Assembly (NCBI GenBank): GCA_019454045.1
Contig: SKCR01047776.1
Span: forward strand, 1-64,000
Length of the DNA: 64,000 nucleotides
Source of the DNA: Zanthoxylum bungeanum
Lineage: Eukaryota; Streptophyta; Magnoliopsida; Sapindales; Rutaceae
Direction: 5' to 3'
Numbering within the stretch: position 1 is the stretch's first letter; each line of letters begins with the position of its first letter. The notes below the pieces were generated by a model. It was not told the origin of the DNA. It saw only the letters and a list, made by a program, of their open reading frames with translations, and did no database searches. The position numbers and the translations under genes are program-made. Below, in pieces: positions 11,865 through 34,107 of the stretch.

Positions 11865-12762
11865 TGACCGGCGTAAACACACACGTATAACGCAAGCGTA
11901 CGTATCGTTCAAGTAGTATAAAAAGTATCGATCCCACGAGGACTTAATACCTAAGTTATTAATTTTATGAGGTTAAATGATTACTAGTATCTAACAAGTT
12001 GTTTAATTAATTTGAAATGGCGACGATTCTAAATTTAAAGACAAGTAAATAAAATTGTTCGAACGTAGATTTTAAGAAAATTCAATATTAAAAACTATCT
12101 AGGGTTGTGATTTCTTTTAATATCATTTTAAAGATGAAGTGGTAATCTTATAGTTGGGTAAAATATTGATTTATTAACTTGGAACACTAAATTATGTCAA
12201 AGCCTATTCCGATGGTCAATTACAAATACCTAGTATAATCCAATTGAACCATATGTCTACGTCAACCAAATTACCTAGATTCATTAAGATTAAGTTCCAA
12301 TTATGGTTACCCCCGCCCGACAGGTATATTCCTATCATGTAAGGAAATCTATTAAAGGGTTATCTATCCTCAGGAAGATCGTGGGCTATTGAGCTAGGGT
12401 TTTAAACTTAAAATAATATGTCTAGTTCATTTTAAGTTTACCTAGTTAATTTAATTAATGGTCAGTTAATTAAAAAGTATTAAGATTAAGACTCAATAAA
12501 TAAATCTTTATATTACCCAAACTATAATCTAACCCCTTATAAACCGGTGATATTGAAATACATCACAACCCTAGATACTAATTTAGTTACGACACATAGC
12601 TAGGGCTGGTAAAATAAAAGACATAAAATGCTGAAAAGTAATTGCGGTAAAGTAAATACTGAAAGGTAAATTACAATAAAATAAATGCTAAGGTAAAATG
12701 AATTACTTTTACTACTACTCATTTAGATATCTCCCATAAAATAATATATAAACTTGTGATAA

Positions 12763-13010
12763 TATTACCAACCGACCAATCTGGCGGTATCATGATTAAG
12801 TCAAATTAAGTCTAATCAGCCATTAAGGCGGTAATATTTGTCCATAACCAGCCATAAAGGCGGAACCAAAATAAACCAGCCATAAAGGCGGAACCAAAAT
12901 TAAATTACCAACCGACCAATCTGGCGGTATCCTTGATTAGTCAGGTTTAAACCAGATTAAAATTAAATTACCAACTGACCAATATAGCGGTATCCTTTTT
13001 AAGTCAAATT
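12763..13010. repeat. Imperfect short tandem units (ACCAACCGACC...GGCGGTAT) in Athila LTR
   Basis: Units built on CCAACCGACCAATCTGGCGG and CCAGCCATAAAGGCGG recur at uneven spacing of about 30-70 bp. The same array occurs in the other LTR (about 23170-23400) and, in shorter form, in the Athila-2 LTRs (about 27875-28020 and 35140-35285). Conservation in both families suggests a shared LTR module; role unknown. Confidence 0.7.
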
Positions 13011-13287
13011 TTAAATAGTGAATATATTATTCTTAAGGGAGATTAATCTAAATAGCAATAGTAAAAGAATTACCTTTTCACCCTAGCTGGGGAAGTTACC
13101 TCCTCATGATGAATAGTAAAAACTGTAAAAAGTAAGAAAGTAAATTACTATTATTACAAAACGTAATTAAAATTATTACAAAACTAAAAACTAAAATTTA
13201 AAACGAAACTTAGAGAGAGAAGAACTCCCTATTTACATCAAATAAATGGGAGAGAATGGTACAACAAAATCTGAAATCTCGAGCTCA

Positions 13288-13294
13288 ATTTATA
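13288..13294 (-). promoter_or_regulatory. TATA box in Athila-1 3' LTR
   Basis: Minus-strand CCTATAAATTGAG, equivalent to the box at 23689-23695 in the 5' LTR. Confidence 0.7.
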
Positions 13295-13381
13295 GGCGCG
13301 GATAAGCTTCGGGCTTCGCGACGCCAGAGCCTTTGGCGTCGCGACGCTGGAACAGTGAGTCGTGGCATGTTCTCGGCTTGA

Positions 13382-13744
13382 CACGTGGTGATTCGGATAA
13401 GAGGATAAGGCGACACGTGGCGAGGCGGCTAAGAGCTCAATTATTATGCTGACGTGGCGATGACGTGGTGCTGACGTGGCAAGGCGGCTGAGATCAATTG
13501 TCGGCACCGTAGGATTACGACACGTGTCACGACGTGATTGGCTGATGATGACGTGGCATATTGACTCGTTGACCTGTTGACGTGGATGATGATGTGGCAA
13601 GACGCGTGGAAGAGTTGACTCATTGACCGGGTGACGTGGCGACACGTAGGATGACACGTGGCACACTTGGCAATGGTGATTGTCGGCACCGTAGGATGAT
13701 GACACGTGGCACAGCGCACGTTAGCATATCGATGGTGACACGTG
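13382..13744 (-). promoter_or_regulatory. G-box / W-box cluster in U3 of Athila-1 3' LTR
   Basis: Six CACGTG sites (starting 13382, 13414, 13521, 13655, 13703, 13739), several further TGACGTGG sites, and TTGAC[CT] W-box cores around 13560-13625 and 13789. The block lies upstream of the TATA box in element sense. ACGTGGC sites bind plant bZIP factors and TTGAC[CT] binds WRKY factors (established); activity here is inference. Confidence 0.6.
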
Positions 13745-14027
13745 GCACGGCGCACGTTAACAAAGTCAAACTTCTCAAATTCTGACCCGTTGACCCGACG
13801 AACGTTAGTAGATCTGGTGCACGTTAGGCGTCGCGACGCGCAAAATTACCGAAATGCCCTTTTTGCCAATTTTTCCTGTTTTGCTCCAAATCACCTCTAG
13901 AATGTCCTGAAACTTTATTTATCTACAAAATAACACAAAACACATCAAAATATTCACAAGACTCAAGAAACTATACAAAATATTAGGTTAAGTGAGTGGG
14001 AAATAGTGATAGATTTACCACTTATCA

Positions 14028-14039
14028 CACCCCCAAACC
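14028..14039 (-). promoter_or_regulatory. Athila-1 polypurine tract
   Basis: Minus-strand GGTTTGGGGGTG directly abutting the 3' LTR; the equivalent in Athila-2 is at 28970-28981. Confidence 0.85.
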
Positions 14040-15231
14040 TAATATTTTGCTAGTCCTCGACAAAACATAAAATAACATAAATAAATTAACTAAGCCACTT
14101 TCGTAGGGATCACGGTTGCATTTAGCATATGCAACAAGCCTTTAAACCCCTAGGTGTCCCTAGTGGACGAGTTGTAGTCTCGTGAGGGTTTACAGCAATG
14201 ATACCCACAAACATTTTACAAAAGTAAAAAGGTAGTGAAACTAATGCACACAAAAGCAAAAAAACAAGTGAAAAGAGAACAAAGAAGTTATTGACTAATC
14301 AAGTGAAACTTCTACTCCAAGTTACTAGTTGTTTTCTTTCTTTTTAAATTACTAAATAAGTAAATTCTCCGATCGTTTTTACCATTCTCCATATACACAG
14401 CCAACAAAATATTAAACAACTCATTTTTGCCCACAACAATCATAAGTGCAGTTGATAAGAGAGTAATATTTTTGTCCTAAAGTTCTATCAGATTTCACAC
14501 TTTTTGGAGCAATGGAATAATTTTTCTCATTTTTCTGATTTTTTCTTTGATTTTTTTTTTTTATTTATATACAATATCTTCCATCTATGTAAGGAGCTTT
14601 GGGTCGGTGACTCCCAAACCAGTTGGCTTTAGGGCACCAGGTGTTAAGACACCCCTAAGGACTTAATTACTCAGACTTCAGATATATATATTTTTCAGCA
14701 TCTTTGATCCATGTAGCGAGCTTTGGGCCAGTGACTCCCAAACTAGTAGGTTTTAGGGCACTAGGTGTTAAAACACCCTTACAGACTTAATAACTCGGAT
14801 CTCGGAAGTTTTTTTTTTTTTTTACTCCACTGCTTTTTGAGATGCTTCCTCCAATTAAACTAGAGCACTGAATATTACAAACTTTTCAATTTTAGCTCAT
14901 GTCTGTATGTTTCCATGTATGTTGATAATACCTGTCAACTGAGCATATGAAGATTTATTTTAGTCAGTGTTATGGAGAATTCACAAATTAAATAATTTAA
15001 AAGGAGATAAACAAAAATTAACTTGTTTCGAAATAGGTTTGAGATACGTCTCAGGAGTGGAAACTCCTTACTCAGCTATCATTTCCCAATTTCACCTTTT
15101 TAGTCAAAACCAAAAAACGCAAAATATTTTTGTAATTTTTGAAAATTTCCCAATTTTTTTGTATTTTTCGAAAAATTTTGGACTAAAAATAAACAACATA
15201 CAAACTAAAAACAATGTACTAATCAACTAAT
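14040..15231 (-). other. Athila-1 3' non-coding region with a duplicated ~100-bp block
   Basis: About 1.2 kb between the LOG gene and the LTR without a supported ORF. It contains two similar units, 14581-14681 and 14705-14805 (period 124), each with GAGCTTTGGG, TGACTCCCAAAC, GGGCACxAGGTGTTAAxACACCC and GACTTAATxACTC. The GGTGTTAAGACACC piece can form a small hairpin. The same duplication occurs in Athila-2 (29526-29756), so it predates the split of the two elements. Confidence 0.7.
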
Positions 15232-15232
15232 T

Positions 15233-15272
15233 CCCTCCCCCAAACCTAAATGAGACATTGTCCCCAATGTCT
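15233..15272 (-). other. Hairpin plus internal polypurine motif downstream of LOG
   Basis: A perfect 8-bp stem, AGACATTG / CAATGTCT, with loop TCCC at 15253-15272 is followed in element sense by GGTTTGGGGGAGGG (15233-15246). The same arrangement is at 30183-30222 in Athila-2. GACATTGGGGACAATGTC next to a G-rich purine tract recurs in plant Athila-type elements, where it may serve as a second (central) polypurine tract; that role is inference. Confidence 0.7.
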
Positions 15273-15331
15273 TAAACAGTAGAAGAAGAGTTTAGAAAAT
15301 AATACCTGGTTAGCTGAGAATCTACAGGAAT

Positions 15332-15983
15332 TTAAAGGTTAAGATCCAGATTAATCCGACGCCTCTTACCACGATCGTCCTCAAACCAATTTATCTTTGA
15401 AAGAATAGGGTCAACTCGTGGTTTCATAAGCTATGAGTTGGTCTATTAGATCCGGAGCAGTTCTGGCAGTAAAGATGAGTTCTTTTAAAGGTTTTGACAC
15501 AAACCCATTTCTCCGAGCATCATCAAGAAACACACAAAGAAAATCAAAAAATCCATCAACGTTGAGCAGTCCAATTGGTTTCTGGTGTATGTTCAGGTTC
15601 GCCCAAGATAACACAATAAAAATTTCCTCCAATATACCCAAGCCACTTGGCAAAGCAATAAAAGCATCAGCACGGTTAATCATTTCCACTAGTCGTTCAG
15701 ACATACCTGGTACGATCAGTTCCTCTCCGTTTGATGGTTCAATAAGATTTGCCTCTGCCAAGGTTTTGGGATGATTCCCAAAACGTGACTGCCTCCTTCC
15801 TGTGCGGCCTTTGAAACAATCCCATTAGTCCAAGATTTCCTCCGCCATATATTAAGTGCATATTCCTTGTAGCTAAGACTCGACCCAATTCCTGTGTTGC
15901 TTCTATGTATTGTGGTTTAGTACCAACACTACTAACCAAAAACACACAGATGTTTTCAACTCGTCTTCTTGAGTGGCTTCCAT
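15332..15983 (-). pseudogene. LOG-family cytokinin-activating phosphoribohydrolase captured by Athila-1, frameshifted
   Basis: LOG enzymes hydrolyse cytokinin riboside 5'-monophosphates to free bases plus ribose 5-phosphate. Read in pieces, this minus-strand copy covers a full LOG protein of about 217 residues: RRRVENICVF near the N terminus, TKPQYIEA, the nucleotide-loop motif YGGGNLGLMG, GMSERLVEM (containing the conserved Glu-Arg pair) and ALPSGLGILEE in place of the canonical PGGxGTxEE. Then come HQKPIGLLNVDGFF and a tail ending RRRINLDLNL. There are single-base losses near the start codon, after YGGGNLGLMG and before AEANLI, and a one-base gain near LIAYE, so it is dead. Two core motif residues have changed (Gly to Ser, Thr to Ile). 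It lies in sense between integrase/ORF and the 3' LTR and has no introns, whereas plant LOG genes are multi-exon. Family assignment is firm; catalytic activity of any ancestor is inference. Confidence 0.88.
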
Positions 15984-16222
15984 CTTTTATTCTGGATATC
16001 TTCAAAAGTGCAATGATGAGTTGAATTTATAATACCTGAAAAGGGTGAATAAAAATAGCACAAGTATCTTCCAAAGGACGATTAGTAGCAAAATAGTAAA
16101 ATAAATCTTGATATGGTCAAAAAGGTCTGGATCCTGTCGGAGAAAATAACAAAACAAATCAATATTATCAGGAAAAGACAAAGAGATATAATATGTACAA
16201 GAATTTTCAGCTTGATTAACGT

Positions 16223-16789
16223 CTATGCGTCAGGGACAAGCTTCCCATCCAATTTTCTTATAAATTGGCAAACAGGGTCTTTTTTAGTCAGATTCCCAAG
16301 ACTTAATTGTTGTCTTTCTTTTTGAAATTGTGTATGTAATTTGCGAAAGGCTATGTGAACATATCCACTGGGATGCGTCTCAAGAGTCGAAGATATATCA
16401 TCTAAAGACTCCTTACTCAAGCCATCCCTAATGAATTTAATTTTGTCTTCGCGATTATCAGACACCATTCCTAAAGAACGACAATGAGTATTGCAATTCC
16501 AGCGTGCACATTTGTAACAAACACCCATTTGCTTAGCTCTACGTTTCTTTGCATAGGTGCTTTTCAAACCAGGCAGATGTGAAATAAAAGAGTCAGAAGA
16601 CTCACCTGACAATCGGACTCGTGTTTCAATTACCCAACGAATGTCATTGGGAACACCATGGATCGTCAGTAGTCTTATTCGTTCCAAGCGAGCTTTGTAA
16701 CTTTCATTAGAGATTTTTGAGGGAGAGAAGAAAATTGCTTGTGAAGATTTGCGAGAGCTTCTTCCATCTTGAAATGACTTAATCTGCAA
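16223..16789 (-). CDS. Unidentified Athila-1 accessory ORF, 188 codons, Cys cluster
   Basis: An uninterrupted minus-strand ORF between the integrase C terminus and LOG, same sense as the element. I do not recognise it. Visible features: a basic, Ser-rich N terminus, then KARLERIRLLTIHGVPNDIR, a basic patch AKKRRAKQ, a Cys cluster CYKCARWNCNTHC (CX2CX4CX3C, a possible zinc site), and a charged, probably helical C-terminal half (DKIKFIRDGLSKE, FRKLHTQFQKERQQL). It is the longest intact frame in Athila-1's 3' part while neighbours are broken. Athila-2 keeps only the N-terminal third (about 31030-31185). It might be an env-position accessory protein, a second captured host fragment or a nucleic-acid-binding factor; I see no signal peptide or membrane segment. 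Confidence 0.55.
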   Translation of the reverse strand: MQIKSFQDGRSSRKSSQAIFFSPSKISNESYKARLERIRLLTIHGVPNDIRWVIETRVRLSGESSDSFISHLPGLKSTYAKKRRAKQMGVCYKCARWNCNTHCRSLGMVSDNREDKIKFIRDGLSKESLDDISSTLETHPSGYVHIAFRKLHTQFQKERQQLSLGNLTKKDPVCQFIRKLDGKLVPDA

Positions 16790-16905
16790 AAACTAAACAC
16801 ACAAAATTAAATCACACCAAATCACAATATATACAAAAATTTCATGGGTTGCCTCCCTGCGAGTGCTAAGTTTAAAGTCGTCAGCTAGACGTGACTTCTT
16901 GAACG

Positions 16906-18209
16906 TTAGGCTGGATCTGAAAGTGTGACACTTTCTTTTTGTCGCTCAAATGATTCTCCCCAGTAGTGCTTGACACGCTGACTGTTAACCTTGAATGTGC
17001 TGTTGGTATTGGGATCTAGTAACTCAACAGCTCCATATGGTAAAACCTGAGTGATCACAAATGGACCTAACCACCTAGATTTTAACTTTCCAGGGAAAAG
17101 TTTCAACCTCGAGTTGTACAACAACACCTGCTGCCTTGGTTCCAACTGTCTGTGCACTATTTTTCGGTCATGCCATTTTTTGGTCTTTTCCTTGTACAAT
17201 TTGGCATTCTCATAAGCCTGTAGACGAAACTCCTCCAATTCGTTGAGTTGGTGAAGTCTTTTCTCTCATGCAGCTTGTGAATCAAAATTCAACTTCTTCA
17301 GTGCCCAATACGCCTTGTGCTCAAGCTCAACTGGTAGATGGCACGCTTTCCCAAACACCAATTGATATGGGGACATACCAATGGGTGTCTTGTAAGCTGT
17401 CCGTAGGCCCATAATGCATCATCTAATTTTGTTGACCAGTCCCTCCTTGTTGATGAACCACGGTCCTTTCTATTCTCTTGATCTCCCTGTTTGAAACCTC
17501 AACCTGTCCATTTGACTGTGGATGGTAAGCAGTGGCAACTTTATGAGTAACTCCGTATTTAGATAGGAGTGCATCGAAGTATTTGTTGCAGAAATGAGAG
17601 CCACATCACTGATAATTGCCCGCGGTGTTCCAAACTGAGTGAAAATGTTCTTTTTCAGGAATTTGATCACCACTTTTGAATCATTGGATGGCAATGCAAT
17701 TGCTTCGACCCATTTGGAGACGTAGTCTACAGCAACCAGGATGTACAGGTTTCCAATGAGGAACAAAGGGTCCCATGAAATCAATACCCCATACATCGAA
17801 TATTTCCACTTCTAGATGTGTTTTGCAACGGTCCTTCGTTTCTCCTGGAAATATTTCCCATTCTCTGGCACCTGTCACATTGAAAAGCAAAAAGATAAGC
17901 ATTTTTAAAAAGAGTGGGCCAGAACAAACCTAATTGTAGGACTTTGGCTGCAGTTTTGTTTCCGCTGAAGTGTCCGCCATATGGTGATGAATGACAGTGT
18001 TGCAAAACACTGTTGATTTCCTCATGTGGAACACATCGTCTCAATAATTGATCAGCACACCGTTTGAACAGGTACGGTTCATCCCAGACATAGTGCTTGA
18101 CTTCTTTGAAGAAATTCTTCCGTTGCCGAGTTTTCCATTCCAACGGCCATTTTCCTGATATAATGTAGTTGACATAGTCAGCATACCAAGGGACTTCCTG
18201 TTGTTTCAT
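16906..18209 (-). pseudogene. Athila-1 integrase, degenerate
   Basis: Integrase inserts the element cDNA into host DNA in the nucleus. In element sense the pieces are: zinc-binding HHCC domain (HCHSSPYGGHFSGNKTA then CDRCQRMG, about 18010-17840); catalytic core with [10 protein letters not shown] (first Asp) and [13 protein letters not shown], then GTPRAIISD (second Asp region); a broken stretch at 17240-17470 still readable as the DALWAYG / HINWCLGKR region; and the C-terminal domain at 16906-17238 with SRWLGPFVITQVLPYGAVEL and VKHYWGE. Several frameshifts and stops separate the pieces. The 16906-17238 piece has a close relative in Athila-2 at 31320-31646. Confidence 0.85.
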
Positions 18210-18239
18210 GGCAAACAGCTGTTCATCTGGAAAAGTTTC

Positions 18240-19854
18240 TTTATTGACAGATCTTTGCCAGCTGTTTCTCCATTCTCGAGCCTCGATAGATGATCTGCCA
18301 CATGATTCTCTATTCCTTTCCTGTCTCGAATCTCCACGTCGAATTCTGCAAAAGAAGTATCCAACGGATCAATCTGGGTTTGGCATCTTTCTTTGTGATC
18401 AGATATTTGATTGCTGAATGATCTGTGTAGACCACCACTTTGGGACCCAACAGATAAGAGCGAAATTTGTCAAAAGCGTACACAACTGCGAGCAACTCCT
18501 TTTCGTGGTTGTGTAGTTGAGTTGAGCTTCATTCAAAGTTCTGCTGGAGTAGTAAATGGTGTGGAAAATCTTTGCTTTGCGTTGTCCCAAAACTGCACCT
18601 ACAGCAAAATCACTAGCATCGCACATTACCTCAAATTGAAGGGTCCAGTCTGGTGCTACTATGATGGGAGCAGAGACCAGCTTTTGTTTTAAGATTTCAA
18701 AGGCTTCCTGGCATTCTTTAGTGAAGTTGAAAGGCACATCCTTCTCCAGAAGATTGCAAAGAGGTTTAGCAATCTTGGAAAAGTCTTTGATAAATCTCCT
18801 GTAAAAACCTGCATGTCCAAGAAAACTTCGAATACCTTTTACTGATGTTGGTGGAGGTAGTTTTTCAATTGTCTCTATCTTTGCTTTGTCTACCTCAATC
18901 CCCTTTTGTGAGATCCGGTGTCCAAGAACAATGCCTTCTTGCACCATGAAGTGACATTTCTCCCAGTTGAGTACCAGGTTTGTATCTTCTTCGCACCTTG
19001 TAACATCTGTTCCAAATTTTGCAAACAATGGTCAAAAGAATCTCCAAACACAGAAAAATCATCCATAAAAACCTCCATATTCTGCTCCAGCATGTCTGAG
19101 AAGATGGCCATCATGCAACACTGAAATGTAGCAGGAGCATTATATAATCCAAATGGCATCCTGCGGAAAGCAAAAGTACCATAGGGACATGTAAAGGTAG
19201 TTTTCTCATGGTCTTCTGGTGCGATGGCAATGTAATTGTACCCTGAATATCCGTCCAGAAAGCAATAGAACTCATGTCCTGCCAGTCTGTCTAACATCTG
19301 GTCAATGAATGGTAGCGGAAAATGGTCATTTCTCGCGGCTTTGTTAAGTTTCATGTAGTCCATGCATACTCTCCATCCAGTCACCGTTCTTGTTGGGATC
19401 AGCTCGTTCTTTTCATTGGTGGCCACAATAATTCCTCCTTCTTTGGTACACACTGCATAGGACTTACCCAACTGCTGTCTGAGATGGGGTAAATGATGCC
19501 AGCATCCAACCATTTGATGATTTCTTTCTTCACGACTTCCTTCATGATTGGATTGAGTCTCCGTTGATGCTCCACTGTGGGTTTGTATTCATCATTCATC
19601 AGAATCTTGTGCATGCAAAATGATGGACTAATGCCTCGAATGTCTGCTATAGTCCAGCCAATGGCTCTTTTGTCTCGTAACACTCTCAACAACTTTTCTT
19701 CCTGCTCCAATGTTAGTGAAGAAGAAATAATAACAGGTAATTCAGAAGAGTTTCCAAGAAATGCATACCTGAGATGGCTTGGAAGTAACTTCAGCTCTAA
19801 CTGTGGTGGTTCTTCAATCGAAGGCTTGATTCGATCTTTCTTTGGTAGTTCCAA
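18240..19854 (-). pseudogene. Athila-1 reverse transcriptase and RNase H, degenerate
   Basis: Copies element RNA into DNA and removes the RNA strand. From 19854 downward: an N-terminal segment with LDAGIIYPISDSSWVSP; the fingers/palm with WRVCMDYMKLNKAARNDHFP; FYCFLDGYSGYNYI; FAFRRMPFGLYNAPATF; and the catalytic box EVFMDDFSVFG (19040-19075) with both Asp residues kept. Thumb/connection with KCHFMVQEGIVLGHRIS and LGHAGFYRRFIKDFSKIAKP follows, then RNase H with [32 protein letters not shown] and [12 protein letters not shown]. At least three frameshifts break the reading. The F(M)DDFSVFG form is typical of Athila. Confidence 0.88.
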
Positions 19855-20112
19855 CTTTCAACCGCTGGGTTGCTTTGAATCGGAATGGTTTGTCAAGGTA
19901 GTTAATACATTCCAGGATTTCAGCATCTAGCTCACTGTCAGTCAGGTTGGTGATGCAAGCTTCAAGTGTATCTGTGGGATTTGGCTCAGTATTTGAACGA
20001 TACTTTCAACAACATCAACTCTGAAGCATTCTTCTTCCTTTTCATCACTTGGGAATTTCATGGCTTTGAAAACATTAAAGGTCATTTCTTGGTCCTGCAC
20101 TTTCATGGTCAG

Positions 20113-20418
20113 TTATCCTTTTTGCACATCAATCACAGTTTTACCTGTAGCCAAGAATGGTCTCCCAAGAATGATATGTATTTCTTTGTCTTCTTCCATG
20201 TTAAGGATGATGAAATCTGCTGGGAGAATTAGTTTGTCTACTTTTACCAGCACATCTTCAACAACACCTCTTGGAAATGCAAGTGTTCGGTCGCAAGTTG
20301 CAATGAAACGGGTAGGCATTGCTTCTCCAATCTGCAGTTTCCTGTAATTAGAAAAAGGCATCAAGTTAACACTAGCACCTAAATCACATAAAGCCTTACC
20401 GATATAATGTTCTCTCAA
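20113..20418 (-). pseudogene. Athila-1 aspartic protease domain
   Basis: Retroviral-type protease that would cut Gag-Pol. It contains GKALCDLGASVNLMPFS, with D-x-GAS replacing the usual D-S/T-G catalytic loop as in other Athila proteases, then FPRGVVEDVLVKVDK, LPADFIILNME and HIILGRPFLATG. It lies directly downstream of gag in sense, linked by the SFTVPCTI segment before 20418. Open over about 100 codons but cut off from reverse transcriptase by further breaks. Confidence 0.85.
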
Positions 20419-22034
20419 TGGTGCATGGAACTGTGAAACTGCCAGGATCTTTCAACTTCGGGGAAGTTTCCTCTGAATAATGGCGCTGCATTCTTCCGTT
20501 AATGCTACTGTTTCGTAGTCTCCCAATCTCCATTTTCGTGAAAGAATGTCTTTCATGAATTTGACATAACTGGCTGGGCATTTCTTCCAGGCTTCTGCAA
20601 ATGCGATGTTGATTGCAGCTTTTTGAAAACTCAAGGAATCGAGCAAACTGCTTGTCCAGTTTTTTTTTTTCTGAAGACGCTGAGGAAAATTTGGAGGTGG
20701 ATTGATCTGTTCTTTTTTTCCTTTGCCCTCTTTTTCCTTTGCTCTTTTCCTCCATCTGTTTTTCAGCTTCTTTTGGAACTTCTTCTTGGGACATCTTTAA
20801 TCCAACATTTTTGTTGATTTCAGTACCGCTTTTCAAAGTAATGGCTTGACATTGCTCCTTCTCCTCGTTCATTGGATGGGTTCTGTGTTACTGGGAAGAT
20901 TTCATGGTGGTTAAATAACTCTGAGCATTGTCCAGTTATCCGATTTGATTCTCCAGTGCTTTGATGGAAGCTGATTGGCTCTGAAAGATAGCATCGTACT
21001 TTTTTAACTGAGCTAGCACTTCTGCTATTCCTTGTTCATTTGCCTGCTCCTGGCCTTTGTTCTGTTGCTGGAATCCAGGTGGTGGATAGTTCCGCTGTTG
21101 GCCTGAATTGTTGCTCCATGAAAAATTAGGATGATTCCTCCACCCTGGGTTGTAGGTGTTGGAATATGGATTGTTCCCCTGCCTGTTGAAATTGTTGACA
21201 AAATTCATCGTTTCTTCTTAGTTGGTTTGATTCTGGTGCTCCTCCATATGGTGCACTTGTGGATCCAGTGGTAAGAGTCTCCGAAATTTGCATATCTGAT
21301 CTAGCTTGGTGTTGACTGCTGTATTAGCTCCACTTTCATAAATTCCTACAATTCTTTGGATCATGCTCCTTTCTGTTGGCCACAAAGAATTGTTGTTGGC
21401 CATTTCTTCAATTAGTTCCCAGGCTTGATCTTCTCATTTTGCCATTAAAGCTCCTCTAGCAGCAGCATCTATTGTGGTTCTCATTATTCCAGAAAGTCCA
21501 TTATAGAATGTTTAGACTTGAAGCCATTTTGGAATCTCATGGTGTGGACATTTCCGGAGTAAATCTTTGTACCTTTCCCAAGCTTCGTAGAGAGTTTCTG
21601 AGTCTTGTTGCACAAAGGATGTGATGTCATTCCTCATCTTTCCAGTTCTGGCTGGTGGAATGTATTTTGCAAGAACTTTGGAGGCTAAAGTGTTCCATGT
21701 TGTGATAGAACCTGCTGGTAATGAATGTAGCCAAACTTTAGCTCTGTCCTTCAAGGAATATGGGAAAACACGCAGTCTCATTGCTTCTTCAGCTTCTCGG
21801 TTGTAATTGAAAGTGCCGCAAACTTCCAGGAAGTTGCTGATGTGGGCATTAGGATCTTCAGTTGCATTCCCCCCAAACTGAACTGACTGCTGAATCATTT
21901 GAATGCATGTTTTGATGTCTCCTGCATTTGCTGGTAAGGGAGGAGTACAATGCAAGAATGGGTCTGTCAATCACCGGAATGGTTCTGTCTCGAATAGGAA
22001 TTGGTGGTGCAACCTCCAAAGGTTCATGTTCCAT
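20419..22034 (-). pseudogene. Athila-1 gag with C-terminal linker, frameshifted
   Basis: Capsid/nucleocapsid protein. The likely start is the ATG at 22034 (MEHEPLEVAPPIPIRDRTIP), matching Athila-2's gag start. The capsid domain runs about 21970-21512: TCIQMIQQSVQFGG, FLEVCGTFNYNREAEEAMRL, RVFPYSLKDRAKVWLHSLP and YEAWERYKDLLRKCPHH. It is followed by NNSLWPTERSMIQRI and the Athila-type segment NPYSNTYNPGWRNHPNFSW (about 21110-21170). The linker QCQAITLKSGTEIN (near 20840) precedes protease. Single-base changes split it into at least four frames. No CCHC zinc knuckle is evident. Confidence 0.85.
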
Positions 22035-22250
22035 GTTGACTAAAGCTTCTGGCCTTGGCTCGCCTTCCCCTTCTCAACTGTCTGATGGTTCTTTCAATTT
22101 CTGGGTCAAGCGGTCGAAGTTCAAAGCTTCTGGTTCGTCTCATGAAGTTCCTGAGAACCTGAAACACAAGAAAACAATAACAATAAGTAAAAATAAATTA
22201 GATACAAGTAAAAGTATCTAACCCCTAAAATAAATATAAAAGATAAATAA

Positions 22251-22260
22251 GTCCCGCCAA
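22251..22260 (-). promoter_or_regulatory. Athila-1 primer-binding site, internally deleted
   Basis: The position next to the 5' LTR holds only TCCCGCCA, where Athila-2 has the full tRNA-Asp complement (34084-34101). About ten bases in the middle are missing, so normal priming is unlikely for this copy. Confidence 0.7.
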
Positions 22261-23688
22261 AAAAACTTGACCGGCGTAAACACACACGTATAACGCAAGC
22301 GTACGTATCGTTCATGTAGTATAAAAAGTATCGATCCCACGAGGACTTAATACCTAAGTTATTAATTTTATGAGGTTAAAATGATTACTAGTATCTAACA
22401 GGTTGTTTAATTATTTGAAATGGCGACGATTCTAAATTTAAAGACAAGTAAATAATTGTTCGAAAGTAGATTTTAGAAAATTCAATATTAAAAACTATCT
22501 AGGTTGTGATTTCTTTTTTTAATATATTTTAAAGATGAAGTGGTAATCTTATTTATAGTTGGGTAAATATTGATTTATTAACCTGGAACACTAAATTATG
22601 TAAAAGCCTCTTCCGATGGTCAATTACAAATACCTAGTATAATCCAATGAACCATATGTCTATGTCAACCAAATTACCTAGATTCATTAAGATTAAGTTC
22701 CAATTATGGTTACCCCCCGCCACGACAGGTATATTCCAATCCTGTAAGGAAATCTATTAAAGGGTTATCTATCCTCAAGGAAGATCGTGGGCTATTGAGT
22801 CTAAGGTTTAAACTTAAAATCCTATGTCTAGTTCATTTTAAGTTTACCTAGTCAATTTAATTAATGGCCAGTTAATTAAAAAGTATTAAGATTAAGACTC
22901 AATAAATAAATCTTTATATTACCCAAACTATAATCTAACCCCTTATAAACCGGTGATATTGAAATACATCACAACCCTAGATACTAATTTAGTTACGACA
23001 CATAGCTAGGGCTGGTAAAATAAAAGACATAAAATGCTGAAAAGTAATTGCGGTAAAGTAAATACTGAAAGGTAAATTACAATAAAATAAATGCTAAGGT
23101 AAAAGGAATTACTTTTACTACTACTAATTAGATATCTCCCATAAAATAATATATAAACTTGTGATAATATTACCAACCGACCAATCTGGCGGTATCCTGA
23201 TTAAGTCAAATTAAGTCCAACCAGCCATTAAGGCGGTAATATTTGTCCATAACCAACCATAAAGGCGGAACCAAAATAAACCAGCCATAAAGGCGGAACC
23301 AAAATTAAATTACCAACCGATCAATCTGGCGGTATCCTTGATTAGTCAGGTTTAAACCAGATTAAAATTAATAACCAACCGACCAATATAGCGGTATCCT
23401 TTTTAAGTCAAATTTTAAATAGTGAATATATTATTCTTAAGGGAGATTAATCTAAATAGCAATAGTAAAGATTACCTTTCACCCGAGCTGGGGAAGTTAC
23501 CTCATCATGATGAATAGTAAAAACTGTAAAAAGTAAGAAAGTAAATTACTATTATTACAAAACGTAATTAAACTTATTACAAAACTAAAAACTAAAAATT
23601 AAAACGAAACTTAGAGAGAGAAGAACTCCCTATTTACATCAAAGAAATGGGAGAGAATGGTACAACAAAATCTGAAATCTCGAGCTCA

Positions 23689-23695
23689 ATTTATA
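23689..23695 (-). promoter_or_regulatory. TATA box of Athila-1 5' LTR
   Basis: Minus-strand TATAAAT in GTGCCTATAAATTGAGC; about 65 bp downstream of the nearest G-box in element sense. Confidence 0.7.
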
Positions 23696-23759
23696 GGCAC
23701 GGATAAGCTTCGGGCGTCACGACGCTGGAACAGTGAGTCGTGGAATGTTCTCGGCTTGA

Positions 23760-24081
23760 CACGTGGTGATTCGGATAAGAGGATAAGGCGACACGTGGCG
23801 AGTCGGCTAAGAGCTCAATTATTATGCTGACGTGGCGATGACGTGGTGCTGACGTGGCAAGGCGGCTGAGATCAATTGTCGGCACCGTAGGATGCGACAC
23901 GTGTCACGGCGTGATTGGCTGATGATGACGTGGCATATTGACTCGTTGACCTTTGACGTGGATGATGAGTGGCAAGACGCGTGGAGAGTTGACTCGTTGA
24001 CCAGGTGACGTGGCGACACGTGGATGACACGTGGCACACGTGGCAATGGTGATTGTCGGCACCGTAGGATGATGACACGTG
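23760..24081 (-). promoter_or_regulatory. G-box / ACGT-core cluster in U3 of Athila-1 5' LTR
   Basis: At least seven CACGTG sites plus TGACGTGG and TTGACT/TTGACC cores in about 320 bp directly upstream of the TATA box in element sense. Three CACGTG sites fall within about 30 bp near 24015-24045. Not present in the Athila-2 LTRs. Confidence 0.6.
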
Positions 24082-24387
24082 GCACGGCGCACGTTAGCAA
24101 AGTCAAACTTCTCAAATTCTGACTCGTTGACCCGGCGCACGTTAGCAGATCTGGTGCTCGTTAGGCGTCGCGACGCTGAAGGTTTGGCGTCGCGACGCGC
24201 AAAATTACCGAAATGCCCTTTTTGCCAATTTTTCCTGTTTTGCTCCAAATCACCTCCAGTATGTCCTGAAACTTTATTTATCTACAAAATACACACAAAA
24301 CACATCAAAATATTCACAAGACTCAAGAAACTATACAAAATATTAGGTTAAGTGAGTGGGAAATAGTGATAGATTTACCACGCATCA

Positions 24388-26826: not shown

Positions 26827-28969
26827 TGACCGATGCGTAATCACACGCGTATAACGCAAGCGCACGTATCGTTCAAGTAGTATAAAAAGTATCGATCCCA
26901 CGAGTACTTAAAACCTTTGCTATTAATTTTTTATGAGGTCAAATGTTTACAAGTATCTAATAGATTGATTGTTTGATTGGGTGGTGACTTTAAAACTTAA
27001 AACAAGTAAATAAAATTTCTTGAAAGTAGATTGAAGAAAATTCAAATTTATAAAACTATCCAGGGTTGTGAATCATTCCAATATCTATTAAAGATGAAGT
27101 GATTATCTTACAGTTGGGTAATATATTAATTTAATAACCTGGAACACTAAATTATGTAAAAGCCTCTTCTGATGGTCGATTACAAATACCCAGTATAACC
27201 CAATTGAACCATATGTCTTTGTCAACCAAATTACCTGGATTCATTAAGTTTAAGTTCCAATTATGGCTACCCCCGCCCGACAGGTATATTCCTATCCTGT
27301 AAGGAAATCTATTAAAGGGTTCTCTATCCTCAAGGAAGATCGTGGGCTATTGAGTATAAGGTCTTTAACCTAAAATCCCTTTTCAAGTTCATTTTAAGTT
27401 TACCTAATCAATTTTATTAATGGCCATTTAATAAAAAGCATTAAGATTAAGACTCAATAAATAAACCTTTATATTACCCAAGCTATAATCTAACCCCTTA
27501 TAAACCGGTGATATTGGATTTCATCACAACCCCAGATAACTGGCTTAGTTACGACACATATTTACGGGTAGTAAAAATTTAAATAAAATAAAAGACATAA
27601 AGTAAAATACTGAAAATTAAATACTGAAAAGTAAATTGCTGAAAAGTAAAAAAAAAAAGTAAAAAGTAAAAGTAAAAAGTAAAAAGTAAAAAGTAAAAAA
27701 AAATAAAAGTAAATTACTGAAAGTAAATTGCTGAAAATTAAATACTGAAAAGTAAATTACTGAAATTAAATAAAGTAAAAGTACAATAAAAGAAAATGCT
27801 AGGGTTAGAGGATCAACTTTTATTACTGTATTTTAGATATCTCCCTTAATATAATATATTAACTTTACGTGATAATTACCAGACCAGCCATAAAGGCGGT
27901 ATCCTGATTAAGTCAAATTAATAATTAATTACCAACCGACCAACCAGGCAGTATCCATACTTAGTCAGGTTAAAACCAATTTATAATTAATTACCAACCA
28001 GCCAATATAGCGATATCCTCATTAAGTCATTTTAAATAGTTTATATATTATAATTAAGGGAGATTAATCTAAATAGAAATAATAAAAGCTTTACCTTTCA
28101 CCCCAGCAAAGGGGAATTACCTCCTCATTGCTTGAAAAATAAAAACTGCAAAAGTAAAGAAAGGAAAGGATTGTGCGTAAAAGTAAATTGCGGAAAGTAA
28201 AAATTGAAAAATAAAGAAAAGAAAGTGCGAAGGCGGAAATTAATTTCTGAAAACTGTAAATAAACAAACAAGATACAATCTTCTTATCTATTCTTTAGGA
28301 ATTTCAAAGAAGAAAGTATGAATTTTACAAATGAAATGGTTTGGTATTTATAGGCAAAATTTTGCCTCCATCAAATCATCCATCAAATTCTCCACCAAAT
28401 CCATTATTAATTTCTCCACTAATTACTCCACCAAATCCATTATTAATTGCTCCACTAATTGCTTATCATGTTTGGTGATGATTTGATAATTTTATTATTT
28501 ATTTATTTATTTGCTTTGAAAATGATTGAAAATGACTTTAATAATTACACACAACACACTTTTGGATGTTTCATCAATTGCGGTCATGAAATCTTCAGAA
28601 TTCGAAAATATTTTGTGTTTCAAAGTTGTAGATCTTTGAGTCTTCTTTAATCTGGCACTTGAATCAGCTCAATCCGATATTGGAGTAAAAATTTATGCCC
28701 ACAATACGACAGATGTGCAAATCTGGAATTTCCAAAACTGCACTTTGTCAAAAACGCCCTTTCAAGTTTCCAATCTCCAAAATTAAAATATCAAGTCCAA
28801 TAATTGCCCTTATTTGACCCATATTTCATCCTAAATGAATTCATTGATACCCGATATTATTTTATCTGCAAAATAACTAAAATACATCAAAACGTTCATC
28901 AAACCCGAGAAACTAAACAAAATATTAAGTTAAAGGGGCGGTAAATATTGATATATTTTCCGCTCATCA
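26827..28969 (-). repeat. Athila-2 3' LTR
   Basis: About 2.14 kb, TGACCGATG ... GCTCATCA in plus orientation. Contains AAGTAAA-rich low complexity at 27590-27790 and TCCACCAAATCCATTATTAAT repeats at about 28375-28460. A minus-strand TATA box (TATAAATA) lies at 28345-28352. It shares the general Athila-1 LTR order but is clearly diverged from it and lacks the G-box cluster. Confidence 0.9.
27590..27790. repeat. AAAGTAAA / CTGAAAAGTAAA low-complexity repeat in LTR
   Basis: Short A-rich units; a matching array is in the other LTR at about 34870-35050. Confidence 0.8.
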
Positions 28970-28981
28970 CACCCCCAAACC
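28970..28981 (-). promoter_or_regulatory. Athila-2 polypurine tract
   Basis: Minus-strand GGTTTGGGGGTG next to the 3' LTR, identical to that of Athila-1. Confidence 0.85.
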
Positions 28982-30182
28982 TAACATTTTGCTAGTCCTT
29001 GAGCAAAACAACAACAAAAAATTAAACTAAGCCACTTTCGTAGGGATCACGGTTGGATTTAGCGTATGCAACAAGCCTTTAAACCCATAGGTGTCCCTAG
29101 TGGACGAGTTGTAGTCTCGTGAGGGTTTACAACAATGATACCCACAAACATTTTACAAAAGTAAAAAGGTAGTAAAACTAATGCACACAAAAGAAAAAAG
29201 ACAAGAGAAAATAGAAAAAAGAAAGTTAGTGACTAATCAGGTGAAACTTCTACTCCAAGTTACTAGTTGTTTTGTTTCTTTCTAAATTACCGAATAAGTA
29301 AATTCTCCGATTATATTTACCATTCTCCATATACACAGCCAACAAAGATAATAATCAATCTCAGTTTTGCACACAACAGTCATAAGTGCAGTTGAGAAGA
29401 GAGTAATATTTTTATCCTGAAGTTTTATCAGAATTCACACCTTTTGTAGCAATAGAATAATTTTTCTGATTTTTTTCTGATTTTTTTTCTTTTTTCCTAT
29501 ATTTTTTTATTAAATACAATACCTTCCATCTATGTAACGAGCTTTGGGCCGGTGGCTCCCAAACCAGTTGGTTTTAGGGCACCAGGTGTTAAGACACCCC
29601 TACGGACTTAATTACTCAGACTTCAGATATATATATTTTTGCAGCATCTTTGATCCATGTAGCGAGCGTTGGGCCAGTGACTCCCAAACCAATTGGCTTT
29701 AGGGCACTAGGTGTTAAAACACCCTCACAGACTTAATAACTCGGATCTCAGACGTTTTTGTTTTTTTTTTTTACTCCATCACTTTTTGAGATGTTTCCTC
29801 CAATTAAACTAGAGCACTGAATATTACAAACTTTTCAATTTTAGCTCATGTCCGTATGTTACTATGTATGTTGATAATACCTGCTAACTGCGCATATGAA
29901 GATCCATTTTAGTCAGTATTATGGAGAATTCACAAATTAAATAATTCAAAAGGAAATAAACAAAAATTACTTGTTTCGAAATAGGTTTGAGATACGTCTC
30001 AGGAGTGGAAACTCCTTACTCAGCTATCTCTTATCAATTTCACCTTTTTAGTCAAAACAAAAACACAAAATATTTTTGTAATTTTTGAAAAATTTTCAAT
30101 TTTTTTTTGTATTTTTCGAAAAAATTTGGACTAAAAAATAAAAACAACACACAATTAAAAAGAAGATATTAATCAACTAATT
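28982..30182 (-). other. Athila-2 3' non-coding region with duplicated block
   Basis: Closely similar to 14040-15231. The two related units lie at about 29526-29626 and 29651-29756. No ORF is supported. Confidence 0.7.
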
Positions 30183-30222
30183 CCCTCCCCCAAACCTAAA
30201 TGAGACATTGTCCCCAATGTCT
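30183..30222 (-). other. Hairpin plus internal polypurine motif
   Basis: The same 8-bp stem with TCCC loop (30203-30222) and G-rich purine tract (30183-30196) as at 15233-15272, again just downstream of the LOG stop codon. Confidence 0.7.
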
Positions 30223-30281
30223 TAAACGATAGAAGAAGAGTTTAGAAGATAATACTCTGGTTGCTGAAATTCTACAGGAAA

Positions 30282-30934
30282 TTAAAGGTTAAGATCCAGA
30301 TTAATCCGACGCCTCTTACCACGATCGCCCTCGAACCAATTTATCTTTGAAAGGATAGGGTCAACTTGTGGTTCATAGGCTAAGAGTTGGTCTATTAGAT
30401 CCGTAGCAGATCTGGCAGTAAAGAGTAGTTTTTTTAAAGGTTTTGACCCGAACCCATTCTTCTCGGGCATCATCAAGAAACACACAAAAAAATCATAAAA
30501 TCCATCAACGTTAAACAACCCAATGGTTTCTGGTGTATGTTCAGCTTCGCCCAAGATAGTACTATAAAAATTTCCTCCAATGTGCCCAAGCCACCTGGCA
30601 AAGCAATAAAAACATCAGCACGGTTAATCATTTCTACCAGTCGTTCAGACATACCTGGCACGATCAGTTCCTCTCTGTTTGATGATCCAATAAGATTTGC
30701 CTCTGCCAAAGGTTTTGGAATGATTCCTAAAACGTTACTACCTCTTTCCTGTACCGCCTTTGAAATGACCCTCATTAGTCCAAGATTGCCTCCGCCATAT
30801 ACTAAGTGCATATTCCTTGCAGCTAAAACTCGACCCAATTCATGTGCTGCCTCTACGTATTATGGTTTAGTACCAACACTACTACCACAAAACACACAGA
30901 TGTTTTCAACTCGTCTTCTTGAAGTGGCTTCCAT
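30282..30934 (-). pseudogene. LOG-family phosphoribohydrolase captured by Athila-2, near-complete
   Basis: The better-preserved copy. From the ATG at 30934: MEATSRRRVENICVFCGSSV, giving the canonical LOG N terminus FCGSS-x-G-x-x-P. Then come LVYGGGNLGLM, VLGIIPKPLAEANLI, VPGMSERLVEMINRADVF, the intact signature ALPGGLGTLEEIF, LSWAKLNIHQKP, LFNVDGFYDF, DLIDQLLAYEPQVDP and the end GKRRRINLDLNL. Length without breaks is about 217 residues, the usual LOG size. Breaks: a CAA-to-TAA stop after GTKP, a one-base loss after NIHQKP, and a compensated minus/plus one pair around the DFF...PEKNG segment. It is intron-less and in sense with the element. A LOG protein would act in cytosol or nucleus to release active cytokinins. 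Dead as read, though two of the breaks are single bases in short runs. Confidence 0.9.
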
Positions 30935-31029
30935 GTTTTACTCTGGATGTCTTCAAAAGTGCAATGATGAGTTGAATTTATAACACCTAAAAAGGGTGAG
31001 TAACAATAATAGCACTAGTACCTACCAAT

Positions 31030-31185
31030 CGGATTTGTGCTTCAATTACCCATCGAATGTCATTAGGAACACCATAGATTGTTAGTAGTCTCATCCGTTC
31101 CAAGCGAGCTTTGTAAACTTTCATCAGAGATTTTTGAGGGAGAGAAGGAAATTGCTTGTGAAGATTTGCTAGAGCTTTTCCATCT
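31030..31185 (-). pseudogene. N-terminal remnant of the accessory ORF in Athila-2
   Basis: Similar to the start of the 16223-16789 ORF: readable as ARLERMRLLTIYGVPNDIRW-like text in one frame. The remainder, including the Cys cluster, is deleted at about 31025 and joined to sequence upstream of LOG. Confidence 0.7.
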
Positions 31186-31319
31186 TAAATGACTTAATAT
31201 GAAAAAACTAAACGCAAAAATTAAATCACACCAAATCACAATATATATAAAAATTACATGGGTTGCCTCCCTGCGAGCGTTAAGTTTAAAGTCGTCAACT
31301 AGACGTGACTTCTCGAACG

Positions 31320-31646
31320 TTAAGCTGGATCTGTAACACTTTCTTTTTGTCGCTCAAATGATTCTCCCCAGTAGTGTTTGACACGCTTGTTTTTAACCTT
31401 GAATGTTTTGTTGGAGTCAGGATCATGTATCTCAACGGCTCTGTCTGGTAAAACCTTGGTGATCACAAATGGACCTGACCACCGTGATTTTGGCTTCCAT
31501 GGGAATAATTTCACCCTTGATTTGTTTAACAGTACCTTCTGCCATGGTTCTAGTTGTATGCACACTAACTTCTCATCATGTCTTTTCCTTGCATTTTCCT
31601 TGTACAATTTGGCATCCTCAAAAGGATGTATGTGAAATTCCTCCAA
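31320..31646 (-). pseudogene. Integrase C-terminal domain remnant of Athila-2
   Basis: An open 108-codon frame with PWKPKSRWSGPFVITKVLP and VKHYWGESFERQKESV, clearly matching Athila-1 16906-17238. The zinc-binding and catalytic domains are absent upstream because of the internal deletion, so it cannot act as an integrase. Confidence 0.8.
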
Positions 31647-31775
31647 TTCGTTGAGTTGGTGGAACTTTTTCTCTTCTGTTGCTTATAGTGCAAGAATAGG
31701 CTTCTTCAGCACGCAGTGCGCTTTATCTTCAGGCTCCACAGGTAATTGACATGTTTTAAGTTTGTCAGTAGAACT

Positions 31776-32259
31776 TTATCTTTCATCAGAGTTCTGATCG
31801 GTACTATATATCACATCAAGTCTGAAACATTCCTCCTTCTTTTCATCATCTGGGAAATTCATGGCCTTGAAAACATTGAATGTACTTCTTGGTCTTGTAC
31901 CCTCATGGTTAGTTCTCTTTTTGTACATCAATAATGGTTCGACCTGTAGCCAAGAATGGTCTCCCGAGGATGATTGGCATGTCTGCATCTTCCTCCATAT
32001 CAAGGACAATAAAATCTGCTGGGAAAATGAATTTGTCAACCTTGACCAGCACATCCTCAACTACGCCTCTTGGAAATACGAGCGTTCTATCAGCAGTGTT
32101 GTAGAGTGAGATTGAAGTGGGCATTGTTTCTCCAATATGCAGTTTCCTGAAAATAGAAAAAGGCATCAAGTTAACACTAGCACCTAAATCACACAGAGCC
32201 TTACCGAAGTCATGTTCTCCTATAGTGCAAGGAACAGTGAAACTGCCAGGATCTTTCAA
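31776..32259 (-). pseudogene. Athila-2 aspartic protease domain
   Basis: Contains GSFTVPCTIGEHDFGKALCD, LGASVNLMPFSIFRKL, FPRGVVEDVLVKVDKF, MPIILGRPFLATG and IDVQKEN. The domain itself is open from 32259 to 31909. After a frame change, a few more codons are readable to about 31776, then the deletion junction follows. It would process Gag if expressed as a Gag-Pro fusion. Confidence 0.85.
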
Positions 32260-32299
32260 CTTTGGAGGAATTTTTCTCTGAATGATGGCGCTGCATTCT

Positions 32300-33868: not shown

Positions 33869-34083
33869 GTTGACTAAAGCTTATTGGCCTTCTCGCCTTT
33901 CCCTTCTCAACTGCCTGATGGTTCTTTCAATTACCGAGTCAAGCGGTCGGAGTTCAAAGCTTCAGGTTCGTCTCATGTAGTTTTTGAGAACCTGAAACAC
34001 AAGAAAACAACAATAATAAGTAAAAAGAAAATTAGATACAAGTAACGAATCTAACCTCAAAAGTATAGTGAAAGATAAATAAG

Positions 34084-34101: not shown

Positions 34102-34107
34102 AAAACT

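What the first reader, a model, noticed from the sequence alone, without database searches (positions are those of the whole stretch)
15332..15983. A LOG-family cytokinin-activating gene carried inside Athila-like LTR retrotransposons
Seen: between integrase and 3' LTR, in sense, both Athila elements hold a full-length intron-less LOG-like gene (FCGSS, YGGGNLGLM, PGGxGTxEE and HQKPxG motifs) at the equivalent position (15332-15983 and 30282-30934). Known: LOG enzymes release active cytokinins, and plant LOG genes are multi-exon. Inference: an ancestor captured a processed LOG mRNA and spread it. I do not recall a described family of LOG-bearing Athila elements.
Basis: partly seen in the sequence, partly recalled or inferred. 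Interest (0 to 1): 0.93.

Follow-up and report, generated by a model that had tools for sequence, protein, structure and literature searches.

The report
Retrotransposons carrying a remodelled LOG gene
A plant genome carries a plant-hormone-type enzyme gene (LOG) inside thousands of jumping-gene copies; selection has kept the gene, but its hormone pocket has changed and it has gained a new tail, so it is probably a tool of the jumping gene rather than an ordinary hormone gene.

Summary
Both window elements are LTR-bounded with perfect 5-bp duplications and carry a full-length, intron-less, sense LOG gene between integrase and 3' LTR, but both copies are broken. A 30-nt LOG pattern has 24,749 matches genome-wide (reversed control 0). 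All 20 sampled copies have element LTR downstream; 9 show LTR, primer site, LOG and LTR in one 10-kb stretch. The three host LOG genes read have introns that element copies lack. LOG is under purifying selection (median dN/dS 0.23; 0.33 in a less biased sample of 20), comparable with gag and pol, also in elements reduced to a gag remnant plus LOG. The 37 element-type LOGs in the tree form one clade. Of 120 listed relatives, 110 have lost Lys100 and Glu125 of the cytokinin (prenyl) pocket while mostly keeping the catalytic residues, and 78 of 97 full-length ones end in a basic-LxLxL tail. A neighbouring ORF matches carlavirus nucleic-acid-binding proteins. LOG (YgdH) domains in Citrus and Populus Gypsy elements are in print (PMC9289625), so the kind is known. 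Most likely this is an element-encoded effector derived from LOG; classic cytokinin activation is doubtful for the derived lineage. Nothing was assayed.

The parts
11865..24387 (-). Element A: LTR retrotransposon, LTR to LTR, 12,523 bases
   Evidence: LTR pair; TG..CA ends and GATTG duplication at 24392-24388 and 11864-11860
22268..24387 (-). 5' LTR of element A
   Evidence: 95.1% over 1874 columns plus 89.8% over 322
11865..14029 (-). 3' LTR of element A
21512..21970 (-). gag (Retrotrans_gag)
   Evidence: PF03732 E 1e-17
20113..20418 (-). protease-like ORF
   Evidence: PF08284 E 0.0079, below cut-off
18399..19513 (-). reverse transcriptase and RNase H (two overlapping open frames)
   Evidence: PF00078 E 8.4e-20, PF17919 E 2e-23
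16906..18209 (-). integrase in several frame pieces
   Evidence: PF17921 E 1.7e-9; PF00665 E 2e-7, just under its cut-off; the C-terminal piece had no Pfam match
16223..16789 (-). ORFX: open frame resembling carlavirus cysteine-rich nucleic-acid-binding protein
   Evidence: PF01623 E 7.4e-6 and PF05515 E 3.4e-5, both over cut-off; 16 of 16 chosen relatives match PF01623
15332..15983 (-). LOG copy A, full length, intron-less, broken (separate frame pieces)
26827..36222 (-). Element B: LTR retrotransposon without RT, 9,396 bases
   Evidence: LTR pair; AGGCG duplication at 36227-36223 and 26826-26822
34106..36222 (-). 5' LTR of element B
   Evidence: 93.9% over 2166 columns
34084..34101 (-). Primer-binding site TGGCGCCGTTGCCGGGGA of element B
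   Evidence: tRNA-Asp type recalled
31011..31139 (-). ORFX remnant in element B
   Evidence: 67% over 43 aa
30282..30934 (-). LOG copy B, full length, intron-less, broken (stop at codon 25, frameshift)
26827..28973 (-). 3' LTR of element B

Best explanation
The LOG gene is an element-encoded accessory gene in the env position of a Ty3/gypsy (Athila-like) retrotransposon lineage. SHOWN: it lies inside LTR-bounded units, lacks the introns of the host LOG genes read, falls in one clade of element-type LOGs with relatives in other eudicots, is under purifying selection, and persists in elements that have lost RT or nearly all of gag-pol. INFERRED: it came from one old capture of a processed LOG mRNA; it is translated from a spliced subgenomic RNA (acceptor-like sites upstream of LOG and ORFX); it still cleaves a nucleoside 5'-monophosphate (Arg99 mostly, Glu122 and the PGGxGT site nearly always kept) but in the derived lineage no longer the prenylated cytokinin nucleotide (Lys100 and Glu125 always, His97 mostly replaced); and its disordered tail with a basic patch and LxLxL acts as a nuclear, EAR-like docking motif for host corepressors. 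Together with ORFX it would be a host-manipulation module that favours the element. My rough odds: accessory gene under selection 0.95; altered substrate 0.55; tail working as an EAR-like motif 0.45.
For: LTR-bounded. 24,749 matches. Selection: LOG 0.23 (404 pairs of 29 copies) against gag 0.25, RT 0.32, IN1 0.18; 0.33 in 20 copies seeded on a 30-mer only; third-position excess also in transversions. Reduced elements. Clade. Pocket. Tail: 78 of 97 full-length element-type LOGs against 0 of 120 LOG1/3-type; leucines conserved while the x positions vary; tail pLDDT below 50. Host introns. Acceptor-like sites. ORFX.
Against: No activity, localisation, binding or expression was measured. The pocket inference rests on residues named from LOG structures and on sequence; a changed pocket could still take cytokinin nucleotides. 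Arg99 is Gln in 11 of 120 relatives. LxLxL is short; 'EAR' and 'corepressor' are recalled analogies; 13 of the 90 full-length relatives without Lys100 lack the terminal LxLxL. Most sampled copies were picked by high PF03641 score, which lowers dN; the 30-mer sample has 20 copies, 4 open. Low dN/dS can be inherited from ancestors that still had gag-pol. That relatives in other species are element-borne rests on clade, repetition and two contig-length coincidences, not on LTRs seen.
Confidence: 0.5

Rival explanations
1. Canonical cytokinin activation: the element makes free cytokinin in the cells where it is active, promoting division and so more germ-line or meristem copies.
For: LOG fold with best PDB match AtLOG3; Arg99 kept in 107 and Glu122 in 117 of 120 listed relatives; 10 of the 120 keep the whole prenyl site.
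Against: Lys100 and Glu125 are both lost in 110 of 120 relatives and in 20 of 20 open host copies; His97 is kept in 27 of 120. A trans-acting hormone would help LOG-less copies equally (inference).
Confidence: 0.25
2. Enzymatically dead or minor LOG fold kept as a protein- or RNA-binding scaffold (moonlighting), with the tail as the working part.
For: Pocket change and conserved tail; Arg99 replaced in 13 of 120 relatives, by Gln in 11.
Against: Glu122 is kept in 117 of 120 and Arg99 in 107 of 120 relatives, and both in 20 of 20 open host copies, unexpected if catalysis had lapsed.
Confidence: 0.18
3. Neutral passenger: a captured gene copied along without benefit.
For: Both window copies are broken and 16 of 20 copies of the less biased sample are broken; nearest-neighbour pairs there reach dN/dS 0.92.
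Against: Median dN/dS 0.21-0.33; length 217 aa in 69 of 120 listed relatives and tail kept across rows down to ~48% identity; retention in gag-remnant elements.
Confidence: 0.05
4. Chance insertions beside a host LOG gene, LOG lying outside the unit.
For: None found.
Against: LTRs and target duplications enclose LOG in both window elements; 20 of 20 copies have LTR downstream; the host LOG genes read have introns.
Confidence: 0.01

Closest known systems
LOG (LONELY GUY) cytokinin riboside 5'-monophosphate phosphoribohydrolases, e.g. AtLOG3 (2a33)
   Same: Fold (Foldseek E 1.9e-22), 48-55% identity to LOG3 in the five rows compared, PGGxGTxEE, catalytic Arg/Glu mostly kept
   Different: Separate clade in the tree, prenyl-pocket residues replaced in the derived lineage, extra basic-LxLxL tail, no introns, carried by retrotransposons
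Gypsy elements with a YgdH (LOG) domain in Citrus sinensis, C. clementina and Populus trichocarpa (PMC9289625: abstract, passages and section 12 read; it cites Steinbauerova et al. 2011, which is not held and was not read)
   Same: LOG-family domain in plant Ty3/gypsy elements; Populus LOGs of my list fall in the same clade
   Different: That section reports domain presence only: nothing on pocket, tail, selection, partner ORF or copy number
Phalaenopsis Gypsy elements with an AlkB-type 2-ODD demethylase (PMC9289625, abstract and section 12 read)
   Same: Host-type enzyme gene fixed as an extra ORF in a Ty3/gypsy lineage
   Different: Other enzyme; activity shown there in vitro, not here
Cysteine-rich nucleic-acid-binding proteins of carlaviruses (PF01623)
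   Same: ORFX matches PF01623 and PF05515 over cut-off, with a basic stretch next to a cluster of four Cys
   Different: ORFX is 182 aa in most listed relatives, sits in a retrotransposon, and spaces its cysteines differently from the virus described in PMC8839810 (passages); no function shown

Membership tests
LTR retrotransposon unit containing LOG | LOG between two related LTRs with TG..CA ends and a target-site duplication | tested here: met
   Both window elements. Elsewhere duplications were not checked: 9 of 20 sampled copies show sense LTR-PBS-LOG-LTR in the fetched stretch, 11 do not show that 5' end
Ty3/gypsy superfamily | RT-RNaseH before integrase | tested here: met
   order of RVT_1, RNase H, H2C2, rve in element A
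Athila lineage | RT/IN phylogeny with Athila references | not tested
LOG phosphoribohydrolase | PF03641 over cut-off, PGGxGTxEE and catalytic Arg99/Glu122 | tested here: met
   20 of 20 open host ORFs keep Arg99 and Glu122
LOG phosphoribohydrolase | Prenyl-pocket set Met96 His97 Lys100 Glu125 Trp129, said to be identical in AtLOG3, OsLOG, CpLOG, CgLOG (PMC4979012, passages read) | tested here: not met
   0 of 20 open host ORFs have Lys100 or Glu125; 10 of 120 listed relatives keep the full set
LOG phosphoribohydrolase | Release of free cytokinin from the nucleotide | not testable with these tools
   needs an enzyme assay
EAR-motif repressor | LxLxL motif in a disordered region, conserved | tested here: met
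   the motif name is recalled
EAR-motif repressor | Binding to a TOPLESS-type corepressor, nuclear location | not testable with these tools
   needs binding and localisation assays
Carlavirus CRP family (ORFX) | PF01623 over the curated cut-off | tested here: met
   window copy 26.3 bits and P0241 24.5 bits against 20.9; 16 of 16 chosen members match at E 0.01 or better

The most novel reading that the evidence does not exclude
Plant retrotransposons of this lineage carry a two-gene host-manipulation module: an RNA-virus-type cysteine-rich protein (silencing suppressor or transcription-factor-like) and a LOG enzyme re-tooled to a new nucleotide substrate and docked to nuclear corepressors. The module is a retrotransposon counterpart of viral effectors, its LOG part kept by selection even in elements that have shed most of gag-pol.
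Probability: 0.3. Interest if true: 0.92.

Novelty: new variant of a known kind. Interest (0 to 1): 0.74.

Why it matters
Retrotransposons are usually thought to carry only what they need to copy themselves. Here a hormone-pathway enzyme matches at about 25,000 places in one genome, is kept by selection, has lost pocket residues tied to its hormone substrate and gained a docking-like tail, and sits next to an ORF of a plant-virus protein family. If the enzyme acts on another nucleotide, that points to an unknown nucleotide signal or defence step worth disarming; if it still makes cytokinin, retrotransposons may tune host growth. Either outcome is testable with one purified protein. It also warns that some 'LOGL10' annotations (three Populus entries) may be retrotransposon genes.

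Tried and rejected
Rejected: LOG outside the unit. Rejected: selection signal only from picking high-scoring copies; it weakens but stays in the 30-mer sample (0.33). Revised: 'LOG-only' elements turned out to carry a second frame, ORF-Y, weakly similar to gag-C-terminal and post-protease stretches of the full elements, so they are gag remnant plus LOG. Revised: I expected the 9 ORF-Y and 19 ORFX rows to part on the LOG tree; instead the best tree needs 4 changes of label (starred branches force 3; shuffled mean 7.8-7.9), suggesting that LOG moved between backbones, but only 5 of 25 inner branches are starred. Led nowhere: IMG/VR scans with LOG gave 16 loci matched over part of the query at 26-55% identity and with ORFX none. 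Of the paper listings (for LOG, extra ORFs and Athila; 49, 50, 98 for carlavirus), I opened six papers in all and only PMC9289625 had LOG in a retrotransposon; searches listed none, most other listed papers (for example 18 holding 'Athila' and 'cytokinin') were not opened. PMC7076952, PMC6317226 and PMC11963269 were searched for terms only, without LOG findings. Five 10-kb stretches at least 145 kb from the listed hits held no LOG, gag or pol match and one LTR-like stretch; at ~6 LOG matches per Mb that is expected. Genome counts for ORFX and for the downstream UTR did not complete. The grouping into 10 'basal' and 110 'derived' rows was made; ungrouped counts are. Rows dropped: one search counts only the 97 of 120 relatives of 205-260 aa (of all 120, 88 end in LxLxL); one search dropped L001 (same place as L009), copies covering under 60% of a protein and pairs with dS of 0.03 or less; one search dropped L001 and L006; one search used the 14 ORFX copies whose match starts at residue 1-3. 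L005 and L006 have identical LOG frames, so the '20 open host copies' are 19 different sequences. Host species was not identified.

Full report
WHAT WAS CLAIMED.

OBSERVATION. Self-comparison gives LTR pairs for element A (24389-22268 and 14029-11865) and element B (36226-34106 and 28973-26825). Both units begin TGATG, end GGTCA, and are flanked by perfect 5-bp duplications (GATTG; AGGCG), giving 24387-11865 and 36222-26827 on the minus strand. LOG lies inside both, sense to the element. Element A has gag, protease-like, RT, RNase H and integrase matches in order (the protease and integrase-core matches are under their cut-offs); element B lacks RT and most of integrase. Both LOG copies are full length but broken: A matches in separate frame pieces, B has a stop at codon 25 and a frameshift.

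COPY NUMBER. A 30-nt pattern over the LPGGLGTLEE codons (up to 3 mismatches) has 12,448 forward and 12,301 reverse matches in the 3.96-Gb assembly; the reversed control has 0 and 0. The Pfam search (PF03641) had 47,331 loose candidates and scored 150, all at E 2.6e-33 or better. Duplicate contigs of one place are not excluded from these counts.

IS LOG PART OF THE UNIT ELSEWHERE? I took 20 of the 150 best places (biased to intact LOG) as stretches of 9-10 kb. All 20 have element-LTR sequence downstream in sense. Nine (L009, L012, L013, L016, L018, L020, L022, L023, L024) show sense LTR, TGGCGCC primer site, LOG and LTR in one stretch; the other 11 do not show that 5' end (in L010 the upstream LTR-like stretch is antisense; in L021 another element lies upstream). 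Six have RT (L011, L014, L017, L019, L027, L028; L014 without an integrase match), seven are without RT but with ORFX (L010, L015, L016, L018, L020, L022, L026), six have ORF-Y and no gag or pol match in sense (L009, L012, L013, L023, L024, L025), and L021 is unresolved.

GAG-REMNANT ELEMENTS. In five of the six (L009, L012, L013, L023, L024) the primer-site-to-LOG region was compared: it is shared at 77-88% identity (in L024 with a ~1.3-kb extra stretch) and holds a frame of up to 395 aa. That frame is weakly similar (24-52%, best E 1.3e-4) to gag-C-terminal and post-protease stretches of fuller elements. So these are non-autonomous elements with a gag remnant plus LOG. On the LOG tree the 9 ORF-Y and 19 ORFX rows need 4 changes of label on the best tree, 3 forced by starred branches, as if LOG had moved between backbones; most forks there are poorly supported.

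HOST LOG GENES. A C-terminal LOG query gave 28 places at 55.9 bits or more: 26 at 65-90% identity that stop at residue 47-54 of 64, and two at 59% that run to 63 (C2730, C42560); of the other 122 listed rows, one (53%) stops at residue 47 and the rest run to residue 62-64 at 38-44%. Three of the 28 places were read. L070 and L071 (C42560, C2730) show both sides of an intron inside the PGG motif. L072 (C30408) has an acceptor right before GGYGT with no LOG exon seen in the ~800 bases upstream, an intron between HDKAV and GLLN, and a donor-like site after KKME. Element copies run through all three points. L070 and L071 keep MHQRKAEM, the canonical pocket stretch.

SELECTION. Pairwise dN/dS (Nei-Gojobori) over top-scoring copies: LOG 0.23 (29 copies), ORFX 0.43 (17), gag 0.25 (7), protease 0.18 (14), RT 0.32 (8), RNase H 0.28 (8), integrase 0.18 and 0.27 (7, 19); 20 open LOG frames alone give 0.21. 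The six LOG pairs among four gag-remnant elements give 0.18-0.26 (L009, stopped at codon 158, was not in that set). Because those copies were chosen by score, I took 20 copies seeded only on an exact 30-mer: 4 of 20 are open by my rule (one frame, no stop before codon 210; in one the match starts at residue 11), median dN/dS 0.33 (5-95%: 0.16-0.60) leaving out the seed codons; nearest-neighbour pairs range from 0.14 to 0.92, as expected if copies decay after insertion. Differences by codon position are 3442/2138/4857, transversions 1392/884/1747, so the third-position excess is not only methyl-C decay.

RELATIVES. The protein search scored 7,999 candidates, 7,839 at E 1e-10 or better, and listed 120; 69 of the 120 are exactly 217 aa; named hosts are Populus, Xanthoceras, Reevesia, Diplodiscus and Paulownia, three Populus entries being called LOGL10. 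In a tree of 57 rows the 37 element-type LOGs (30 relatives, 7 host copies) form one group (99/98) apart from 17 LOG1/3-type rows; P0081, P0112 and P0033 split first, the place of P0033 being weakly supported. Two pairs of LOG and ORFX proteins come from contigs of equal length (8,723 and 4,511 bases) with a shared source label, suggesting linkage outside this host; the contigs were not seen.

POCKET. PMC4979012 (passages) gives Arg99 and Glu122 as proposed catalytic residues and Met96, His97, Lys100, Glu125, Trp129 as the likely prenyl site, identical in AtLOG3, OsLOG, CpLOG and CgLOG. In 120 LOG1/3-type proteins all these are kept. Of 120 listed element-type relatives, 10 keep the full site; in the other 110 Arg99 is kept in 97, Glu122 in 107, Trp129 in 108, His97 in 17, Lys100 in 0 (Leu 59, Ile 27, Met 23, Phe 1) and Glu125 in 0 (His 42, Gln 26, Thr 24, Ile 13, five others once each). 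The 20 open host copies (19 different) all have Arg99, Glu122, Trp129, Leu100 and Ile125. The split into 10 and 110 was made after seeing the tree.

TAIL. 78 of 97 full-length element-type LOGs end in LxLxL against 0 of 120 LOG1/3-type; the latter are the proteins closest to AtLOG3, so other LOG classes are not covered except the host genes L070 and L071, whose last exon was read and does not end so. Leucine stands at 211, 213, 215 and 217 in 82-84 of the 88-95 rows with a letter there, while 214 and 216 vary; 207-208 are basic. In the 20-copy host sample the column letters at 213, 215 and 217 are Leu in 17, 18 and 17 of 20. The AlphaFold model (mean pLDDT 87.4) is a LOG fold with residues 203-217 below 50. 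P0040 has the tail with the canonical pocket and six relatives have the canonical pocket without the tail; 13 full-length relatives have the changed pocket without a terminal LxLxL. Tail before pocket change, with later losses, fits; it is not proven.

PARTNER ORF. ORFX matches PF01623 and PF05515 over cut-off. Its search gave 394 relatives at E 0.01 or better among 436 candidates; all 120 listed have PF01623 precomputed, and of 16 that I aligned 16 match PF01623 and 14 PF05515. PMC8839810 (three passages) says carlavirus cysteine-rich proteins bind nucleic acid, suppress silencing and, in one virus, are linked to induction of a host transcription factor and cell proliferation. Whether ORFX does any of this is unknown, as is the direction of transfer. 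Its weaker constraint (0.43) speaks for a less essential or faster-evolving part.

EXPRESSION. About 50-90 nt before the LOG start all 30 aligned rows (L001 and L009 being one place) have a T-rich stretch ending in CAG, or TAG in window copy B; TTTTTGCAG lies 6-16 nt before the ORFX start in 14 of 14 aligned rows. I read these as splice acceptors; no donor or transcript was tested.

MECHANISM AND STANDING. Best reading: an element-borne effector derived from LOG, probably still catalytic, with a changed base pocket and a docking tail. The kind (LOG domain in Gypsy elements) is in print for Citrus and Populus, citing a 2011 paper that is not held. Searches behind the statement that I found no further description: over a library that lacks most subscription journals, with most listed papers unopened. 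I therefore call it a new variant of a known kind.

Noticed in passing
window 49044-59215: LTR pair 49044-51099 / 57156-59215 at 99.6% identity, with no open frame of 150 aa or more listed inside: a very recent, apparently non-autonomous LTR insertion.
   Followed up: partly
window 16223-16789: ORFX, a carlavirus-type nucleic-acid-binding protein family ORF inside a plant retrotransposon, with relatives in several eudicots; no paper on it seen in the listings.
   Followed up: partly
window 3696-4669 and 10015-10956: Direct repeats ~88-90% identical, ~6.3 kb apart, perhaps LTRs of another older element.
   Followed up: no
window 43420-48739 (+): Weak gag, RT, RNase H and integrase matches in order on the plus strand: probably another Ty3/gypsy element of a different lineage.
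   Followed up: no
L021 (G000:C23974:106600-116500): A LOG-bearing element has another element of the same group in opposite orientation directly upstream, a likely nested insertion.
   Followed up: no
P0009, P0016, P0031 (Xanthoceras): Annotated proteins with two fused, partly repeated LOG domains.
   Followed up: no
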